Below are positions 253 to 9,436 of a stretch of DNA of 9,551 bases, piece after piece. Both the position numbers and the translations under genes were made by a program. Numbering within the stretch: position 1 is the stretch's first letter; each line of letters begins with the position of its first letter. The notes under the pieces are model-generated. The model was not told where the DNA came from and ran no database searches. It saw only the letters and a list, made by a program, of their open reading frames with translations. Origin of the DNA: Ignavibacteria bacterium (GTDB lineage: Bacteria; Bacteroidota; Ignavibacteria; Ignavibacteriales; Melioribacteraceae); assembly GCA_003233295.1 (NCBI GenBank), contig QILJ01000403.1, positions 1 through 9,551 on the forward strand, read 5' to 3'.

Positions 253-3200
253 CTAAGTACTAGATTGTGCAGACAATTCAACAACTAAATACTCACTATT
301 TGATTCGAAAATTGATCTAGGGTTTTGACTATAACCAAGTTGCTTATTAGCATATTCAGCAACGTTTTTTCCAAGATAATCACCCAGTGATCTATCAGTA
401 ATATACTTATTATTATCTATTACTTCATTCACCTCACCATTAATAGCCCTTACTAAATGATAAGTCCAAATCCCCTGTTCTAATTTATCACAGGAGTACG
501 AACTCTGCTCTAGTTGACAAGAGAAGTATGAAGCTAAATAATTAAGCTCACTACTTAAAATTCTAATTTCGTCGGCATCAATATTTGATAGTGTATTTCT
601 GCTATTTTCATCTTGAATGGATTGAGCACATGCATCAATAAAAATTATGGCAGTTTTACATTTAGATTGAGACAATGGATCTAATAATATTGTACGTAGT
701 GAAACTGCGGTTTCAGCAACATAGAAAGGATGCATATCATACGTTGACAAGTAATTATCTACACCATTGTGAAACCCGTGACCTACGTAATAAAATATAA
801 GACGATCTTCAGCAGTCAACTCATGAAATAGTCCTTTTAGATCATATTGCAAATCATTTTTTGATGCCTTTTCACCCAGAAAGATATGAATATTTTCTTC
901 TTTCACATTCATTTTTGTGATTAATATATTTTCAAATAAACGAACATCATTTTCTGCATATTTTACATCATCAATTTTATTTTCGTCCCTAGGTTTATAC
1001 TTTTCGATACCAATAACAATTGCTATTGTTCTTGCATATTCAGAAACTTTTATTTCTTTATTTTTATCAGAACTAGATTTTTCTTCAAGTATGGTACTGC
1101 TTCCACTTCTTATATATCTTTTATTCCCTAAAGTGATTTCAACTTCTGATTTATTTACTTTAATAACAAAAATAAATTCATCTCCAACATTTACCCAATC
1201 ATAGGAAACAATGGGTTTTGACGAAAGAAATGTAATAGATTTTTTGATGATTTCATCCACTCTAAAATCAGAACTAAGCCCTGTAATAGTATTTAACTCT
1301 GGAGAGAGTTCATTAATTCCAAAAATCAAAGAACCTCCTTCAGTATTAGCAAATGAAGAAATTATCTCAGCTGTCTTATATGGAGAAAATGGCACAGCAT
1401 TAAATTCATAATTAACCGATTTAGGCTTAATAAGTAACTCTTCAAACTCTAAACCAGTAAATGTAAAATTCGTTATCGGTATTCTATTAATTTCAGTCAT
1501 CTTTAATAGCTTACCTAATGTTATTTTATATGGAACATTAGAACCACCTTCACACCATAACTCCGCATCTACATACTCAAGAACATCAAACTCAGCAGTA
1601 TAGTAAAGCAATACCATGTCATTATCTGATGGTCTAGCAACAATTGTTATATCACTCCCATTCTTAGTAATTCCTCCGATGATACTTGGGGCTATTTCAT
1701 AATAATTAGCACAGTCATATTCTGACAACCCACTTAAATACTTAGTAATATTTGATACGGCTCTTGAAATTAAACCTTGCACAAATTTAAAACGCTCATA
1801 ATCTGATTTTGAGTTAAAGTAAAATTCTGGTGAAATAGAACCATTGCTAACAGCTTCGACAATCTCATCAAAAGATTTTACATCTCTACCTTTTAGAGGG
1901 TCTTGAACACTTTCATATGCATCTTCAACTTGATTTTCAATTAACGCAACACCTTCAGGAACAACAATACCTTCTTCATCGAAATACTCTTTTATTTCAG
2001 CATTTGTAGATCGCAAAAGAAAGTCTAATTCGTTATCGTGTCCAATTAAATAAAAATAACGACATAGAGATGTTGGAAGTTGTAGAAGCACCTTATTCGA
2101 TTTCCAAGGCTTTGTTACAAATAAATCATGACTGTTCAAGTGTACATTTACACTTTTAGTAAATTCAATATCACCATATTCAATTTGCAGGGTTTCTGCC
2201 TCATAAATACTTAAAGAAGCGACTTTATTATCCAATTCTGACAGCTTTCTTTGAGTCTCTTCATTATTACTTTCTACAGAAACCCAAGCCTTAAAATACG
2301 GAATAATATCTTTCAACCGTGATACCAAGCTTGTTCCAGGCTCTTTTTTATCATATATCAGTTCAAAGTCACTTTGTTTCAATGCAGTTACATTAAAAGC
2401 TTCTAACAATATTCCTATATTTTTATGTCGTTTGTTTTCAGCGTTAATTTCTAAAAAATCGACTTGATCCTGAAATATTGAATTATTTCCATCTAAAAAA
2501 TATTTTAGAGAAGAACATTCCATAAACTTATATTTCGTATTCAGCAACTTCCCTGAACCACCCCACGAAGAAACTTGTTGAATCTCAAGCCCATTCCAAT
2601 TACCACACTGATCCAATAGCTCTTTATAAATACCCTGTATTCTAGTGACATTTTCATTTTTTACTTTCCCTTTCTCAGTCATATCAGAAGATATTTCACT
2701 AAGTATTTTCAAGTAGTCAGATAATTTAAGACAGGTTTTGAACCCAAAGAAAGACTTCCAATCAGGAGACAAATCAACACCATCAAATACTGGCAGATAG
2801 CTCCCAGCAAGTGACTTTATTTCATCAGCATTCAAAAATACAGATGCAGTAATTTGACACTCTTTTGTTATAACAGGGATACATTTAACATTTTTAATGA
2901 ACCATGGAATATAATTTCCAACTTTATTGCCACTATTCCGCCCCGCAAATCCTGTCCGCCCCCAAAATGCTGTTGCAAGTTCAGATATTTTAGAGCATGA
3001 AACATTTTCAATCACATCAGCCCAAAACACCTTTGAAAAAGAATGTTCCTCAACGGTACTCTGGATGTGATTTAGAGTAGCAACCTCACTAAAATAGTCA
3101 GATGTAAACGTTGACACATATGGTGAAAACTTCTTATCCTCTTCTTCAAAATACGGCTTAAGAAAGCCTGATTTAATAAGTTCCTCTTTATCTATTTCTT

Positions 3201-5313
3201 CTTTATTTTTAGAACAAGATATACCTTCGCCTACACCTAAAAACTTGAAGAACCTTTTCCATTCATCTTTATCTTCAATTGTTGAAAAATATTTTTCGCT
3301 TATAAAAATATCAGCATCTAATACATCTTCAATCTCTAATCGAGGCGAATAAATATTGGACAAATAACAATCCTTAGCAGTAAGCAGAGTATCCTTTTGA
3401 GTAAGTAGCTTTAATTTTGACAATTGAGAAAGCAAATCATCCCTCAAATCACCTTTTTTATATAGATTAAAGAGATTCAAGATAGTTTGAATTGCATTCT
3501 CTTGTGTTATATAACTTTCTACATTAGGTATAATTGTTTTTCTGATAAAGCTAATATCTGTTTTTTCAATAACCCCAAGATCTTCAATCCAAGCTCTCAT
3601 ACCAGAATCCGAAGAAAGCCAGTCTTGCAACTCTTTATGTAAAAAAGATAATTCACTATCACTGGCATTCCAGTTAACGTCATCTGCTGTAGGGAAATAA
3701 ACTTGAGATGGGATATTTAATATATCCTTATGATCCCATATAAACGGCAACTCACTAAGCATTCCAGTTGAAACATATGCGACAGACTCCTTTTCAGAAA
3801 GATACTTAAGATGCTTTATTAACTCTATGTTATTTTCAATAGAATGAACATCAAGAAAACTTCTTGATTGTAGAAATTTTGTAAAATCGTTCCATTCAAA
3901 TCCAGTAACCCCAAGCCCCTTAAGCCTGCTCCAAAATTTGGAATACTTAATAAATACCTTTGAACTACTTGAGCCATCATTATTAAAATCATCAATAAAC
4001 TTTTTAATCAATGCTTCGCCAATAAATTCTTTTTCAGAAAGAAATGTAAAATCGATAAGTGCATCTTCAATTTTTACCAGCTTATCTTTCTTTGATACAA
4101 CGAAAGCTACAGTGTCAATAGCCTCTTTGATACTTTCATTGAAATATTTTCCCAGCTCATTCTCAAGTACTTTATTAGGAATTAAATTATAGGCTTGAAA
4201 TTGTATTTCACTCTTAACCAATTGTGAAATCCATTTGAAAATTTCAATTGCTATATTCTTGAATATCCAATGATTCCATTTTGAATCATCATGGAGATGC
4301 TCACGGTTAGCATTTGTCAGAAAACTGGTATTTACAAGAACTGGTAATGAATACTTAGTTTCATCTGTTGGCAAATATGAATAGAGAAGCCTTTCATCTG
4401 AAGCCAGATCGGCTATACCATCAGCATCCATTTTGGCTGCTAATGTTAACTCAATGGTATTCGCTGTTAATAGTTTCTTTGGAAAATTCCGCTCATCTTG
4501 AAGAGTTAACTTTAGCTCTTTCGGTACATTTAAATTGATAGTATTTATCAACCATTGGGCTTCATCAATTCCATTTTTCTTTAAAATTATTTTATCAGGT
4601 TCAGAACGGTTTATTTCTATGCAGCTTATCGCATTTATGTCAAAATTAATTTCAGAAATATTCTTAAGAAAAAGAAACATATTTACATTCTCTGACAACT
4701 CCTGAATTGCTTGAATAGTTTCTTCTTTATTATTCAGCTTAATTATTGTAGCTACATTTACTCTCTGAAGATAGCTATGAACCGATTCTGATACATCTTG
4801 CTTTTCTGTATATATTGGAATTATCTGCCAAGGGTAACTGAATTCTCGACCCTCTTTTTCCTCCCAAATATCTTTATTATCTTCCCATTTCCACTCAAAA
4901 GGATATGAAGAATCAAATCTGAAATATTCATTATTTGTAAATACGATAACTTTGTCAGATTGACCAAAAACAGATTTGAATCCGATACCTTTATAACCAG
5001 TTTTATTCGAATCCTCCTTCTTTGTTCCATCATTAACATTACAAAGCCCCCGTAAATCACGAGCATCAAAAGCTTTACCTGTATGAGCAACAATTAGATA
5101 ATCGTCAAAAGTTTTTATCCATACTTTTACTGTTTTATTTGGCTCAGATGAATCATCTGCATTCTGCAAAAGTTCATAGACAAATCGTTTAGAGTCAGTA
5201 TATAAATCAGTGGATAACGAAATTAAGGAACTAGCTTGATTTATGGATTGACTTGGATATGTATAGTTAGTATTACGATTGAATAGACCATTAATTTCTT
5301 CTTTTAACTTCAT
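253..5313 (-). CDS. Sacsin-like HSP90-type ATPase / AlbA_2 / caspase fusion protein
   Basis: Giant 1686-residue protein, probably a cytoplasmic defence sensor-effector. Residues ~30-215 form a GHKL (HSP90/sacsin-type) ATPase: the N-box is ELLQNADDS (47-55), the second glycine box is GYKGIGFKSVF (106-116), and HTG at 77-79 stands where sacsin relatives usually have HNG. Residues ~311-361 carry a sacsin-type segment (YLPT, NTSFLTNANRE, WN). The helical middle repeats a W-x(n)-LGV motif. Residues ~1180-1290 resemble the conserved tail of bacterial sacsin-like ATPases (IVARPSD, AELW, ITLGKLLKMTEINRIP). Residues ~1295-1412 look like an AlbA_2/Schlafen-type domain (FANTEGGSLIFGI at 1321-1333, YIRSGSST at the end). 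Residues 1427-1686 are a C14 caspase-like peptidase with His1512 in YVGHG and Cys1562 in DACA. ATG start at 5313 has AAGG 11 nt upstream. No signal peptide or membrane segment is seen. Targets and activating signal cannot be read from sequence. Confidence 0.9.
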   Translation of the reverse strand: MKLKEEINGLFNRNTNYTYPSQSINQASSLISLSTDLYTDSKRFVYELLQNADDSSEPNKTVKVWIKTFDDYLIVAHTGKAFDARDLRGLCNVNDGTKKEDSNKTGYKGIGFKSVFGQSDKVIVFTNNEYFRFDSSYPFEWKWEDNKDIWEEKEGREFSYPWQIIPIYTEKQDVSESVHSYLQRVNVATIIKLNNKEETIQAIQELSENVNMFLFLKNISEINFDINAISCIEINRSEPDKIILKKNGIDEAQWLINTINLNVPKELKLTLQDERNFPKKLLTANTIELTLAAKMDADGIADLASDERLLYSYLPTDETKYSLPVLVNTSFLTNANREHLHDDSKWNHWIFKNIAIEIFKWISQLVKSEIQFQAYNLIPNKVLENELGKYFNESIKEAIDTVAFVVSKKDKLVKIEDALIDFTFLSEKEFIGEALIKKFIDDFNNDGSSSSKVFIKYSKFWSRLKGLGVTGFEWNDFTKFLQSRSFLDVHSIENNIELIKHLKYLSEKESVAYVSTGMLSELPFIWDHKDILNIPSQVYFPTADDVNWNASDSELSFLHKELQDWLSSDSGMRAWIEDLGVIEKTDISFIRKTIIPNVESYITQENAIQTILNLFNLYKKGDLRDDLLSQLSKLKLLTQKDTLLTAKDCYLSNIYSPRLEIEDVLDADIFISEKYFSTIEDKDEWKRFFKFLGVGEGISCSKNKEEIDKEELIKSGFLKPYFEEEDKKFSPYVSTFTSDYFSEVATLNHIQSTVEEHSFSKVFWADVIENVSCSKISELATAFWGRTGFAGRNSGNKVGNYIPWFIKNVKCIPVITKECQITASVFLNADEIKSLAGSYLPVFDGVDLSPDWKSFFGFKTCLKLSDYLKILSEISSDMTEKGKVKNENVTRIQGIYKELLDQCGNWNGLEIQQVSSWGGSGKLLNTKYKFMECSSLKYFLDGNNSIFQDQVDFLEINAENKRHKNIGILLEAFNVTALKQSDFELIYDKKEPGTSLVSRLKDIIPYFKAWVSVESNNEETQRKLSELDNKVASLSIYEAETLQIEYGDIEFTKSVNVHLNSHDLFVTKPWKSNKVLLQLPTSLCRYFYLIGHDNELDFLLRSTNAEIKEYFDEEGIVVPEGVALIENQVEDAYESVQDPLKGRDVKSFDEIVEAVSNGSISPEFYFNSKSDYERFKFVQGLISRAVSNITKYLSGLSEYDCANYYEIAPSIIGGITKNGSDITIVARPSDNDMVLLYYTAEFDVLEYVDAELWCEGGSNVPYKITLGKLLKMTEINRIPITNFTFTGLEFEELLIKPKSVNYEFNAVPFSPYKTAEIISSFANTEGGSLIFGINELSPELNTITGLSSDFRVDEIIKKSITFLSSKPIVSYDWVNVGDEFIFVIKVNKSEVEITLGNKRYIRSGSSTILEEKSSSDKNKEIKVSEYARTIAIVIGIEKYKPRDENKIDDVKYAENDVRLFENILITKMNVKEENIHIFLGEKASKNDLQYDLKGLFHELTAEDRLIFYYVGHGFHNGVDNYLSTYDMHPFYVAETAVSLRTILLDPLSQSKCKTAIIFIDACAQSIQDENSRNTLSNIDADEIRILSSELNYLASYFSCQLEQSSYSCDKLEQGIWTYHLVRAINGEVNEVIDNNKYITDRSLGDYLGKNVAEYANKQLGYSQNPRSIFESNSEYLVVELSAQSST

Positions 5314-5383: not shown

Positions 5384-7315
5384 TCATTCATACCAATTCC
5401 TAGGGATTAGCGCTTTATTACCCCTCCATTTTGAATCAGTTACTGCTGATTGAAACCATATTTCATCGATATCGGCGTGGTCAGTAATAATAACCTGAAG
5501 ATCAGGTGAAAGTTCAGCAACGATCTTAAAAACCCATTTAAACATTCGCTTGACTGCTTCACGATCTTCATCTTTAGGTATTTCATCTAAGCTTCCCGTC
5601 ACATCCTGATCTGAAGGAAAATAAACCTGAGTTGGCTGATCAAAAAATATGAAACGACCGACTGGGCGTTTTTGCTCTATAAACCATTTAGCTAAAGCCA
5701 GATAAGCAACCAAATGGTAGCCAACCCAGTTTTCTCCACTTCCCATTCTATACAACGGAGTCCGGCCATGTGGAGTCTCTGCAACGACAGTTAATTTGGA
5801 AACATCAAGCCTTATTGGATGTTCACTATGTTCTAATCCAAGTTCCCGCGCCCACTTTGTCATATCTTCTGCAACGCAGCTAAGCTGTGATTCAAGTTTC
5901 TCTTTGAGCGCCGTAGGGTCTAATTGCTCTTCAAGATCTGTTATTTTTGGCTCAATTCTATTTAATTTATCTTGAAAAAAACTGGTATCATCACTCCATT
6001 CGACACTTTCAAGATATAAAGAAATTCTTCCAGCCGATCGCGACCTTCTATCATCAAGATCTGCTTTTGTGACAAGCTCAGTTTCTTTTTTTCTGAGAAC
6101 ATCCATTGCCTCACGGGTTTTTTTTATATTATCTGCTAGTAGCCTATCTTCCTCTCTTAATGTATTCAGGTATGAGTTAATTCGAGGCTTGTTTCTTGAT
6201 ACTCCTTCTAATTTACTATTAAGGTCTGCTACCGCAGAAGAAATAATAATTTCAGCTTTTGTAGTTTCTTCATGCTCTGATTCACAAATAGGGCAAAAAT
6301 CACTCGGAGTTAAACTTTTAAATAGTCCTATGGATTGCAACCGGAGTAATTGCTCGTTCAATTCACCTTCGAAACCACCTAGTGAACCAGCATACTCATT
6401 AGCGGCTCGAAGTTTTGATCGAACAATTTTCTTTCTCTCAGTAAGTTTTTGGTAATTATTATCAAGTTCGAAGAACGGATCATCTTCAAACTCATCCTCG
6501 AAAGCCCCTGAAGGAGACCATCTGCTTATTCGTTTGAGAATAGTCAAAAGTTCAGAGTCGGTAGGTATTAAGTTGGAATCATGGAGACCGATGCCCGATG
6601 CTTCCGACAGTAGATTAAACCCTTTCTGAAGACCTTGGCCTCTAATGCTTTCAATTTCCTTAATGCGCTTTAAAAGTCGTGCTTTATCGCGTTTCAAATT
6701 TCTCAATTTTTCTAAATCAGCTAACCGATTATCTTTTGCTGCCCCCATAAAATATGGCAATGTATCTTTTATGGCTTGGGGGATATGAGGCTCTGCTTGC
6801 CGATGAAATAATATACGTTTTGCTGCTACTTCGTCCTGCCCTTGAAAAAGATAGTATCTTGAATGCTTAAAACCAACCTTGATTCTTGAGCGAGTCTGTT
6901 CTTCCGGAACTTCAGTTATTTGCTCAGGTATTCCAACTTTACTAGTTAAGAAATCTACGACACTATTAATGTTTGTGGAATTTACAAGCTCCGTAGGTGC
7001 AGGAACTTCAATTTTATTGGCTATTAGCATATGACAAGCTGTATTAGATTTCTGACCATCCATAGGAGCTGATCTTGCGATAAATACTTCCGTATCTGGA
7101 AACTGCAAGAGCACCGCATACCAAGCAACAGTTTGTCTAATGTGTCCTTCAGCAACCGTACATTCACTTGAACCAAGACAATATTCAACTATATCAATCA
7201 GTGAAGATTTTCCTGTTTTTGATGCGCCAGTAATAATATTAACTTTCGATGGTAAAAAATCGACATCTCGTCGTTCTCCATTCTTACCATACAGCGATAT
7301 TTTTAATATTTGCAT
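5384..7315 (-). CDS. ABC-3C system ATPase, SMC/Rad50-like (DUF3732 type)
   Basis: This 643-residue protein is the ATPase of an ABC-three-component system. Walker A is GASKTGKSS (30-38). Coiled-coil stretches flank CPIC at 341-344, a CxxC motif placed like the Rad50 zinc hook. The ABC signature region is YRMGSGENWVGYH (522-534). Walker B is RFIFFDQPTQVYFP (554-567), with DQP where SMC proteins usually have DEP. The His switch is H613 in IITDHAD. This layout matches the DUF3732 family, which is smaller than true SMC proteins because its coils are short. ATP-driven head engagement on DNA is the family expectation, not shown here. The ATG lies 1 nt after the stop of the middle-component gene and has ATAAGG 7 nt upstream, so the two are probably translationally coupled. 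It ends with TGA at 5384-5386. Confidence 0.9.
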   Translation of the reverse strand: MQILKISLYGKNGERRDVDFLPSKVNIITGASKTGKSSLIDIVEYCLGSSECTVAEGHIRQTVAWYAVLLQFPDTEVFIARSAPMDGQKSNTACHMLIANKIEVPAPTELVNSTNINSVVDFLTSKVGIPEQITEVPEEQTRSRIKVGFKHSRYYLFQGQDEVAAKRILFHRQAEPHIPQAIKDTLPYFMGAAKDNRLADLEKLRNLKRDKARLLKRIKEIESIRGQGLQKGFNLLSEASGIGLHDSNLIPTDSELLTILKRISRWSPSGAFEDEFEDDPFFELDNNYQKLTERKKIVRSKLRAANEYAGSLGGFEGELNEQLLRLQSIGLFKSLTPSDFCPICESEHEETTKAEIIISSAVADLNSKLEGVSRNKPRINSYLNTLREEDRLLADNIKKTREAMDVLRKKETELVTKADLDDRRSRSAGRISLYLESVEWSDDTSFFQDKLNRIEPKITDLEEQLDPTALKEKLESQLSCVAEDMTKWARELGLEHSEHPIRLDVSKLTVVAETPHGRTPLYRMGSGENWVGYHLVAYLALAKWFIEQKRPVGRFIFFDQPTQVYFPSDQDVTGSLDEIPKDEDREAVKRMFKWVFKIVAELSPDLQVIITDHADIDEIWFQSAVTDSKWRGNKALIPRNWYE

Positions 7316-7316
7316 A

Positions 7317-7811
7317 TTATGGCCTTATCCCTAGTTGAGCAAAAATTGTTTCCGTAGAGGGGGCATGAGAAAACCACTTTCCTAAAAACCTAGAAGAATG
7401 CAGTGCTTTGGACATGTCGCTACTTTTTTTGAACAAGGCAGGGTTTTTCACTAGCTTATTTTCTGTTAACGAAAATAAGCCGTCATCATTAATCGATAAT
7501 ATTTCTCGATCTAACAAGAAGCTAATAGAGGCACGTACAATTGGAGTGTACGACTCAGCCTGTTCGGAGAAATCAGATAATAGGCCTTCATTTGATGCTA
7601 CCCAAGATGCGATCGGAGTTCTATAAGTGTTTGGCAAATTGGAAGAAATTATTTGATTCATCGCCATGGGAACAATGATAAATGTCAGAGCACAGTGTAC
7701 ACCTTCAGGTTTAAAAGCTATGAATTCGTTAATAGACGAATATAGAATAAAACCGATGTATGCGGGATTAAATAACCCAATCTCTTCTTCTGAATAAAGT
7801 GACTGATCCAA
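7317..7811 (-). CDS. Three-component ABC system middle component
   Basis: Small 164-residue protein matching the ABC-3C middle-component family in size, position and motifs. An N-terminal ...LFNPAYIGFILY segment (~14-25) is followed by a hydrophobic ALTFIIVPMAMNQ stretch (~41-53) and SNLPNTYRTPIASWV (~57-71). The C-terminus holds LGKWFSHA (~143-150) and ends in QLGIRP. Its role in the family is inferred to be bridging the ATPase and the effector protein; it has no catalytic motif. The start is TTG (7809-7811), preceded 10 nt upstream by AGGGGG (7822-7827). No ATG is available before the conserved LFNPA segment, which supports the TTG. It begins 2 nt after the stop of the upstream effector gene and ends 1 nt before the ATPase start, so the three genes form one tight operon. 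Confidence 0.85.
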   Translation of the reverse strand: MDQSLYSEEEIGLFNPAYIGFILYSSINEFIAFKPEGVHCALTFIIVPMAMNQIISSNLPNTYRTPIASWVASNEGLLSDFSEQAESYTPIVRASISFLLDREILSINDDGLFSLTENKLVKNPALFKKSSDMSKALHSSRFLGKWFSHAPSTETIFAQLGIRP

Positions 7812-9142: not shown

Positions 9143-9436
9143 TCACATCCAACGCCGATCAGATTCCGTCCCCCCAAGCCTCCGCTTCCTCTCGTCCGTA
9201 AACTCCCACCATTTCTTAGGCGGGCCGCCTTCCATATACCTCACCGCAGAGATAAAAACACCCAGGACACAAGGATCATGCTTCTGCATCACGCGACAAA
9301 GCGCTTCATAAAGCTGATACGGGTCTCGGTCAACCAGGTCAGCAGGGCGCTTCATACCAAGCAAGACTAAATCTTGCTCCATCGCCTTGCCAATATTGGG
9401 GATATCAGTTAACCGTTTAAGCGATTTCCGTGACAT
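9143..9436 (-). CDS. Cdd1/McrB-like helix-hairpin-helix protein
   Basis: Small 97-residue protein of the 'pathogenicity locus' Cdd1 family, often annotated as mitomycin-resistance protein McrB or helix-hairpin-helix protein. The helix-hairpin-helix is LTDIPNIGKAMEQDLVLLGM (9-28), a non-specific DNA-binding element. It is followed by a family-typical segment with DPYQLYEALC (38-47), Cys56 and KKWWEFTDERK (74-84). Its cellular role is not established; a DNA-repair or DNA-binding accessory role is the usual guess. The ATG at 9434-9436 has a strong GAGGGAG site 5 nt upstream (9442-9448), which fixes the start. Base composition is more GC-rich than the genes to its left, so it may belong to a different genomic layer (flanking DNA or another cargo module). 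It runs in the same direction as the ABC-3C operon, with a 108-nt gap. Confidence 0.85.
   Translation of the reverse strand: MSRKSLKRLTDIPNIGKAMEQDLVLLGMKRPADLVDRDPYQLYEALCRVMQKHDPCVLGVFISAVRYMEGGPPKKWWEFTDERKRRLGGTESDRRWM

What the first reader, a model, noticed from the sequence alone, without database searches (positions are those of the whole stretch)
253..5313. Single protein joining a sacsin-type ATPase, an AlbA_2/Schlafen-like domain and a caspase-like protease
Seen: intact GHKL motifs at the N-terminus (ELLQNADD, GYKGIGFKSVF), an AlbA_2-like segment (FANTEGGSLIFGI, YIRSGSST) and a caspase His/Cys pair (His1512, Cys1562) at the C-terminus, in one uninterrupted 1686-residue frame. Known: each domain occurs separately in prokaryotic conflict systems, with caspase-like proteases as death effectors. 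Inference: the ATPase body senses infection, the AlbA_2 domain contacts nucleic acid, and the protease cuts host or self proteins. I do not recall this exact order as a characterised named system.
Basis: partly seen in the sequence, partly recalled or inferred. Interest (0 to 1): 0.72.

Follow-up and report, generated by a model that had tools for sequence, protein, structure and literature searches.

The report
Hsp90-like sensor fused to bacterial caspase
One giant bacterial protein joins an Hsp90/sacsin-like ATPase to a caspase-type protease; it belongs to a rare but widely scattered family that looks like an anti-virus alarm whose killing end can be swapped, and here that end is a relative of the enzymes that run cell death in animals.

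Summary
One intact 1686-residue frame (253-5313, minus strand) carries a sacsin-type GHKL module, an AlbA_2 domain and a caspase domain with His1512/Cys1562. It is not unique: 118 of the 120 listed proteins (query included) are 1655-1706 aa long and align end to end, and QNADD, GIGFK, the His and the Cys are unchanged in 140 of 140 long ones. Fold models match Hsp90/sacsin and MALT1 paracaspase.

(1) Residues 1-1141 match TmtA, protein of the anti-phage system Tiamat; the rest of that model, NOV_C nuclease in the relatives checked, is replaced here. (2) The tail is a swappable module: relatives carry DarT or Toprim instead, one clade of eight proteins has this caspase tail on a DarT-type body, and a split three-gene version exchanges caspase for a CHAT-like protease. 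(3) A Lamassu trio lies directly upstream, as in 2 of 11 other comparable loci.

The AlbA_2 domain has lost the first Schlafen-type acid and the lysine, so it is probably not a nuclease. Best reading: a Tiamat variant, an abortive-infection protein whose ATPase body releases a caspase. No function was tested.

The parts
253..5313 (-). TmtA-type protein with caspase tail, 1686 aa
   Evidence: one open frame; PADLOC TmtA PDLC03972 residues 1-1141, 1001.7 bits
1954..5313 (-). TmtA body, residues 1-1120 (conserved chassis shared with DarT-, Toprim- and NOV_C-tailed relatives)
   Evidence: BLASTP boundaries against the fetched loci; PADLOC
4636..5202 (-). sacsin-type GHKL ATPase module, residues 38-226
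5173..5175 (-). Glu47, N-box glutamate of YELLQNADD
   Evidence: invariant in 140 of 140
1444..1905 (-). conserved domain of unknown function, residues about 1137-1290 (called RPSD here after its ARPSD motif), linker between body and effector
   Evidence: R1227-P-S1229 in 140 of 140, A1226 and D1230 in 139 of 140; a 42% identical copy ends the sacsin-like protein of the split loci; 38.8% match in a Calothrix plasmid protein
1093..1410 (-). SLFN_AlbA_2 domain, residues 1302-1407, nuclease motif degenerate
   Evidence: Pfam above cut-off; motif comparison
274..1029 (-). caspase (C14) domain, residues 1429-1680
778..780 (-). catalytic His1512 codon
   Evidence: invariant in 140 of 140
628..630 (-). 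catalytic Cys1562 codon (Asp1560 at Cys-2 also invariant)
   Evidence: invariant in 140 of 140
5384..7315 (-). LmuB, Rad50/SMC-like ATPase of the upstream Lamassu (ABC-3C) trio, 643 aa
   Evidence: PADLOC PDLC03859 476.1 bits; Pfam DUF3732, AAA_23
7317..7811 (-). LmuC, ABC-3C middle component 3, 164 aa
   Evidence: Pfam MC3 131.2 bits; PADLOC LmuC 55.7 bits
7814..9034 (-). LmuA, ABC-3C CTD7 protein, 406 aa; N-terminus possibly a nuclease
   Evidence: Pfam CTD7 138.3 bits; PADLOC LmuA 230.7 bits; only a sub-threshold Cap4_nuclease hit for the N-terminus

Best explanation
This is a caspase-tailed variant of the anti-phage protein TmtA (Tiamat). Shown by sequence and fold: a sacsin/Hsp90-like GHKL ATPase with a long conserved body (residues 1-1120) is joined through a conserved linker domain (about 1137-1290) and a degenerate AlbA_2 domain to a MALT1-like caspase. 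Shown by comparison: the body is a chassis on which the C-terminal effector is exchanged (NOV_C nuclease, DarT, Toprim, caspase), with at least one transfer of the linker-AlbA_2-caspase module onto a DarT-type body. Inferred: the ATPase body detects a product of infection (phage protein or aberrant nucleic acid) and changes conformation or oligomerises in an ATP-dependent way; this frees or pairs the caspase domains, which then cleave host proteins or activate a pro-enzyme, stopping growth or killing the cell before phage release. The AlbA_2 domain most likely acts as a structural or ligand-binding coupler rather than a nuclease. The invariant Asp at Cys-2 and the MALT1/metacaspase-like fold suggest cleavage after a basic residue (inference).
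For: TmtA body 1-1141 at 1001.7 bits. Defence-island setting: Lamassu trio upstream in the window, L002 and L003, Gabija helicase by L007, type I restriction genes by L008. Same length and end-to-end match in 118 of 120 listed proteins, query included, and invariant active-site residues in 140 of 140. Caspase and Hsp90/sacsin folds. Effector exchange: DarT in the three tails scanned, NOV_C above cut-off in four of the five such tails scanned, Toprim in L010, caspase tails on DarT-type bodies in eight proteins that form one clade inside the DarT types; one clade for all caspase-type bodies rejected at p 2.6e-41 in a 30-row set. Split operon with the same three modules where caspase is replaced by a CHAT-like protease while the partners stay 91% and 79% identical. 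Published parallels: bacterial caspases in type III CRISPR, gasdermin/CARD, NLR, Thoeris and Canu systems (PMC12799240, abstract and passages).
Against: No activity, ATP binding or phage protection was measured. Tiamat itself is called of unknown mechanism in the two papers where I saw this stated (PMC12926258, PMC10482375; passages), and I could not read the founding paper. The G1-box Asp is His77. The family is rare in samples: no genome other than the centre of 397 in each of two phyla, and in two family samples no complete fusion beyond loci already known. No substrate or trigger is known. AlphaFold pTM is only 0.51-0.53, so the arrangement of domains is not known. The LmuB model used for context also matches in 13 of 14 control genomes at E 1e-10, so only its strong hits count.
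Confidence: 0.7

Rival explanations
1. A four-gene joint system: the TmtA-caspase protein is a working part of the upstream Lamassu, for example its caspase cuts LmuA or LmuB to release the nuclease, as the Canu caspase activates its nuclease.
For: Same strand with gaps of 2, 1 and 70 bases; same order LmuA-LmuC-LmuB-TmtA in L002 (Cohnella) and L003 (Firmicutes MAG), best matches to the same PADLOC models in all three; caspase-nuclease precedent.
Against: Only 3 of 12 caspase-type loci with at least 3 kb upstream (window included) have the trio, judged by BLAST and the LmuB model. LmuA and LmuB of the three loci are only 20.6-26.3% identical to each other and LmuC hardly aligns, while the TmtA proteins are 52-68% identical, which fits separate recruitment or fast divergence better than tight co-evolution. 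Strong hits of this LmuB model lie on other contigs than TmtA in G007 and G1496.
Confidence: 0.15
2. A proteostasis or stress protein: an Hsp90/sacsin-like chaperone with an attached protease that degrades misfolded clients, not an immune protein.
For: Hsp90 NTD-MD and sacsin SR1 are the closest folds.
Against: Patchy distribution, defence neighbours, swappable toxin-like tails such as DarT and NOV_C, and the TmtA match. A housekeeping chaperone would hardly exchange its tail for a DNA-ADP-ribosyltransferase.
Confidence: 0.07
3. An AlbA_2-guided transcription regulator, as some database names suggest.
For: Several members are named 'putative transcriptional regulator' or similar.
Against: These names probably come from the AlbA_2 domain (inference); Pfam found no helix-turn-helix in the protein, and many of the invariant residues are those of the ATPase and the protease.
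Confidence: 0.03
4. The Schlafen/AlbA_2 domain is itself a second active effector (a nuclease) beside the caspase.
For: AlbA_2 is a Schlafen-type family; split relatives keep the E-x4-E-Y-K motif.
Against: In the fused family the first E is K/R in 136 of 140 and the following K is N or D in 129 of 140; the second acid is kept as E or D in 139 of 140.
Confidence: 0.05

Closest known systems
Tiamat (TmtA)
   Same: residues 1-1141 match TmtA model PDLC03972 at 1001.7 bits; same GHKL-sacsin body
   Different: the last part of the model (positions 1128-1302; NOV_C in L021, which matches the model end to end) is absent and replaced by linker-AlbA_2-caspase
Canu (CanABC; caspase-nuclease)
   Same: MALT1-like caspase in an anti-phage setting
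   Different: no MBL-fold hydrolase among the five genes scanned in the window and no Ig-like domain found by Pfam; the caspase is fused to its own ATPase body
Lamassu / ABC-3C
   Same: an LmuA-LmuC-LmuB trio sits directly upstream
   Different: TmtA is not a known Lamassu component and 9 of 12 caspase-type loci with enough upstream sequence lack the trio directly upstream
Eukaryotic sacsin
   Different: sacsin has DnaJ and HEPN domains (PMC3710099, passages); no caspase mentioned there
MALT1 paracaspase and metacaspases
   Same: fold, His/Cys dyad, Asp at Cys-2 (role in MALT1 recalled)
   Different: 14% identity to MALT1; no Pfam death or Ig domain in this protein
Schlafen-type AlbA_2 proteins
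   Same: AlbA_2 family
   Different: first acid and lysine of the motif lost in the fused family

Membership tests
Tiamat (TmtA) | TmtA body | tested here: met
   PDLC03972 residues 1-1141, 1001.7 bits, E 1.7e-301
Tiamat (TmtA) | C-terminal part of the TmtA model | tested here: not met
   match stops at model position 1127 of 1302, while NOV_C-tailed L021 matches 3-1302
Tiamat (TmtA) | protection against phage | not testable with these tools
   needs a phage challenge
GHKL ATPase | N-box Glu/Asn and glycine-rich G2 box | tested here: met
   E47, N51 and GIGFK invariant in 140 of 140
GHKL ATPase | G1-box Asp (DxGxG; motif recalled) | tested here: not met
   His77-x-Gly79 in 140 of 140 instead
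GHKL ATPase | Bergerat fold | tested here: met
Caspase family C14 | caspase fold | tested here: met
Caspase family C14 | His/Cys dyad | tested here: met
   H1512 and C1562 in 140 of 140
Caspase family C14 | proteolytic activity | not testable with these tools
   needs an assay
EACC1-associated caspase (NF047832) | curated score cut-off | tested here: not met
   49.5 bits against 140
SLFN_AlbA_2 family | Pfam score above cut-off | tested here: met
   37.8 bits against 25.3
SLFN_AlbA_2 family | fold match to a solved Schlafen-type structure | tested here: inconclusive
   the fold list was filled by caspases
Schlafen-type nuclease | acid/lysine motif (E-x4-E, K; role recalled) | tested here: not met
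   first E is K/R in 136 of 140; K is N/D in 129 of 140
Canu | partner MBL-fold pro-nuclease gene | tested here: not met
   Pfam on the five window genes shows none; genes outside the window were not seen
Lamassu | LmuB with LmuA/LmuC (the three upstream genes, not TmtA) | tested here: met
   PADLOC and Pfam

The most novel reading that the evidence does not exclude
TmtA is a general Hsp90/sacsin-type immune sensor that passes one kind of conformational signal to any of several exchangeable executioners (nuclease, DNA ADP-ribosyltransferase, Toprim, caspase, or a CHAT-like protease in trans), so that a bacterial Hsp90-like guard directly controls a MALT1-like caspase within one polypeptide, a prokaryotic counterpart of chaperone-gated cell death.
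Probability: 0.4. Interest if true: 0.78.

Novelty: new variant of a known kind. Interest (0 to 1): 0.6.

Why it matters
Tiamat is called a system of unknown mechanism in the papers where I saw this stated. A family that keeps the same body while changing the tail between enzymes of known chemistry makes the mechanism testable: if the caspase, DarT and nuclease versions respond to the same trigger, the body is the sensor and the tail the executioner. It would also add an Hsp90/sacsin-type ATPase to the short list of bacterial caspase activators (CRISPR, gasdermin/CARD, NLR, Thoeris, Canu), and the split operon with a caspase/CHAT exchange gives small, separable proteins for biochemistry.

Tried and rejected
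Looked for copies in E. coli genomes (no match in 'near' mode), plasmids (26 records with partial matches, none covering 80% of the query) and viral contigs (98 pattern matches, none confirmed): no evidence of a phage or plasmid carrier; the phage collection was not searched. Broad phylum samples found only the centre genomes (1 of 398 each); family samples gave 8 of 344 (two complete fusions, both already known as L002 and L005; six caspase-only) and 3 of 349 (the centre and two split loci). Prevalence can only be called low. Promoter- and terminator-like sites are at chance level (38 found, 37.3 expected; 6 found, 5.6 expected), so operon structure rests on spacing and order. No tRNA in the window. 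A search of solved structures with the family profile found only sacsin (4 rows, E 0.003). A single-sequence search with the caspase part gave MALT1 only at E 0.29, so the caspase assignment rests on Pfam and fold. The fold list of the C-terminal model was filled by caspases, so AlbA_2 and linker were not tested by fold. Considered and rejected: assembly chimera for the proteins with DarT-type body and caspase tail (eight proteins on contigs of eight different lengths); AlbA_2 as an active nuclease. The tail of L062 gave NOV_C only below cut-off (15.6 bits against 22.1). Test of one clade for the 19 caspase-type bodies without P0146 gave p 0.02, because the Toprim protein L010 lies inside; this is weak. 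The two body trees disagree on depth: with 53 rows caspase and DarT types are sister groups apart from P0146 and L010, with 42 rows the DarT types nest inside caspase types, so the direction of the first exchange is open. Three further Flavobacteriaceae relatives of the split-type sacsin protein have no match to linker, AlbA_2, caspase or CHAT in the stretch fetched; their C-termini look nuclease-like by eye only.

Full report
WHAT IS THERE. The frame 253-5313 is on the minus strand and encodes 1686 residues without a stop. Pfam places SACS at 38-226, SLFN_AlbA_2 at 1302-1407 and Peptidase_C14 at 1429-1628, each above its curated cut-off. NCBIfam adds P_loop_sacsin. The window appears to be a whole 9551-base contig, and no genome is held for it.

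IS IT REAL. A search of 5.8 billion proteins gave 340 matches; of the 120 listed (query included), 118 are 1655-1706 aa long and align over 99-100% of the query, the 117 others at 51-77% identity. Named members include Shewanella, Vibrio cyclitrophicus, Cohnella, Bacillus, Paenibacillus, Flavobacterium, Tenacibaculum and Belliella. Of the 152 distinct proteins from the two searches, the 140 longer than 1600 aa were aligned (12 shorter dropped): QNADD, GIGFK, H1512, D1560 and C1562 are identical in all 140. The classical G1-box Asp is His77, also in 140 of 140 (the motif is recalled).

THE TAIL IS A SWAPPABLE MODULE. An alignment scan of one genome per species kept the best 80 of 506 loci. By match boundaries, 13 are caspase-type (L001-L009, L012, L017, L019, L041; L006 and L012 are broken into two frames). 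Five (L013-L016, L018) share only the body; the three tails scanned (L013, L014, L016) carry DarT, and the database copies named Taibaiella chishuiensis and Pedobacter polysacchareus, the organisms of L015 and L018, do too. L010 (Arcobacter) shares body, linker and AlbA_2 but not the caspase: residues 1390-1623 match the Toprim part of RT-Toprim_I-C (E 1.3e-28). Relatives of about 1260-1350 aa match the body only; four such tails scanned (L021, L023, L026, L044) are NOV_C above cut-off, a fifth, longer protein (L062) only below it, and L021 covers the TmtA model end to end.

A 53-row tree of the body puts caspase, DarT and Toprim types in one clade (support 100) apart from the 27 short-tailed rows, with the caspase-type protein P0146 inside the DarT types next to L015 (support 100). 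In a 30-row set, holding the 20 caspase-type bodies in one clade is rejected (p 2.6e-41). Along P0146, identity to DarT-type L015 exceeds that to caspase-type L017 in 9 of the 11 hundred-residue windows up to 1100; from residue 1201 on, identity to L017 is 67-84%. A third search found seven more such proteins: all eight have bodies 43-47% identical to DarT-type P0153 and 37-40% to caspase-type P0114, tails 62-69% identical to P0114, and the GHG and DxC motifs. In a 42-row tree the eight form one clade (support 99) next to DarT-type P0158 (support 100), deep inside the DarT types. So the linker-AlbA_2-caspase module has moved onto a DarT-type body at least once. Five proteins (P0177, P0183, P0185, P0189, P0202) end right after the linker domain, with no fused effector.

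A SPLIT VERSION. In two Flavobacteriaceae genomes a shorter sacsin-like protein (849-854 aa) ends in the same linker domain and is followed at once by a separate AlbA_2 protein. In L096 the gene before them is a caspase (PF00656, E 1.5e-21); in L097 it is a CHAT-like protein (PF12770, 24.9 bits against a cut-off of 24, over 47 residues), while the other two genes are 91% and 79% identical between the loci. Both CHAT and caspase belong to protease clan CD (recalled). These two were the only linker-bearing matches among 397 sampled genomes (5 matched at E 1e-20). The same three modules thus occur fused or as neighbours, and the protease is the part exchanged between the two split loci.

THE AlbA_2 DOMAIN. 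In the split loci it keeps E-S-Q-T-L-E-Y-K, the Schlafen-type acid and lysine pattern (catalytic roles recalled). In the fused family the first E is K or R in 136 of 140, the second stays E or D in 139 of 140, and the K is N or D in 129 of 140. Schlafen-type cleavage is unlikely.

THE NEIGHBOURHOOD. LmuA, LmuC, LmuB and TmtA are all on the minus strand with gaps of 2, 1 and 70 bases. The same order occurs in L002 and L003. Of 12 caspase-type loci (window included) with at least 3 kb upstream, 3 have the trio by BLAST and by the LmuB model; L001 and L006 have too little upstream sequence, and the truncated L011 and L020 were not counted. The LmuB model also matches in 13 of 14 control genomes at E 1e-10, so only strong hits are informative. 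The TmtA proteins of the three loci are 52-68% identical, their LmuB proteins 24-26%, LmuA 21-24%, and LmuC hardly aligns. Other loci have a Gabija helicase (L007), type I restriction genes (L008) or conjugation genes (L019) nearby; L009 and L017 gave only weak defence-family matches. This suggests repeated recruitment into defence islands rather than one obligate four-gene system, but a functional link is not excluded.

HOW IT MOST LIKELY WORKS. Shown: architecture, folds, invariant active sites, exchange of effectors, defence setting. Inferred: the GHKL body senses infection and, on ATP-dependent rearrangement or oligomerisation, activates the C-terminal caspase, which cleaves host proteins or a pro-enzyme and stops the infected cell. 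Activation of a nuclease by a MALT1-like caspase is documented for Canu (PMC12799240; abstract and passages). Basic P1 specificity is suggested by Asp at Cys-2 (role recalled).

LITERATURE. In the listings and passages seen from ten searches of the held library there was no description of a sacsin or Tiamat protein with a caspase. Tiamat is listed as of unknown mechanism (PMC12926258, one passage; PMC10482375, two passages). The eLife survey of NTP-dependent conflict systems (PMC7159879) has no hit for Hsp90, sacsin, Schlafen or AlbA in a term search; PMC8195603 has one mention of sacsin, in fusions of a TRADD-N clade. The library lacks most subscription papers, and the founding Tiamat paper did not appear in the listings, so absence here is weak evidence.

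VERDICT. A real, conserved, rare and probably horizontally mobile variant of the Tiamat family with a caspase executioner. The exchange of executioners on one sensor body is the most useful new point.

Noticed in passing
L095 4081-4941 and 4938-6503 (Agrobacterium plasmid NZ_CP115927.1): A stand-alone caspase (33.7% identical to residues 1427-1680) overlaps by 4 bases the end of a predicted pPIWI-associating nuclease gene (PF18165, PF18166), a caspase-nuclease pair reminiscent of Canu with a different nuclease.
   Followed up: partly
L096 1645-6796 and L097 1285-6798: Three-gene split operon: protease (caspase or CHAT-like), sacsin-linker protein and AlbA_2 protein; the AlbA_2 protein's C-terminus looks HEPN-like by eye only.
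   Followed up: yes
window 9143-9436, minus: Cdd1-type gene upstream of LmuA, where GC rises from about 0.38 to 0.48; possibly the edge of the defence island.
   Followed up: no
L013-L016, L018 C-termini: TmtA bodies fused to DarT followed by a segment with an LHDIGKP motif that looks like an HD domain by eye; Pfam gave DarT only for the three tails scanned.
   Followed up: partly
L085-L090: Paenibacillaceae stand-alone caspases, 33-39% identical to this caspase, with about 190-235 extra C-terminal residues (L085 is a fragment) without a Pfam hit in the two scanned.
   Followed up: partly
L006, L012, L020: TmtA genes interrupted into two or more frames (L006 and L012 caspase-type, L020 truncated and its type not seen), so some copies are decaying or misassembled.
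   Followed up: no
L080 9986-20833: A sacsin-type protein of 1526 aa directly followed by a 2084-aa frame in Lutibacter litoralis.
   Followed up: no
L019 6526-9861: In Bacteroides neonati the gene follows a run of genes of which one is DUF4138, a family I associate with conjugative elements (recalled).
   Followed up: partly
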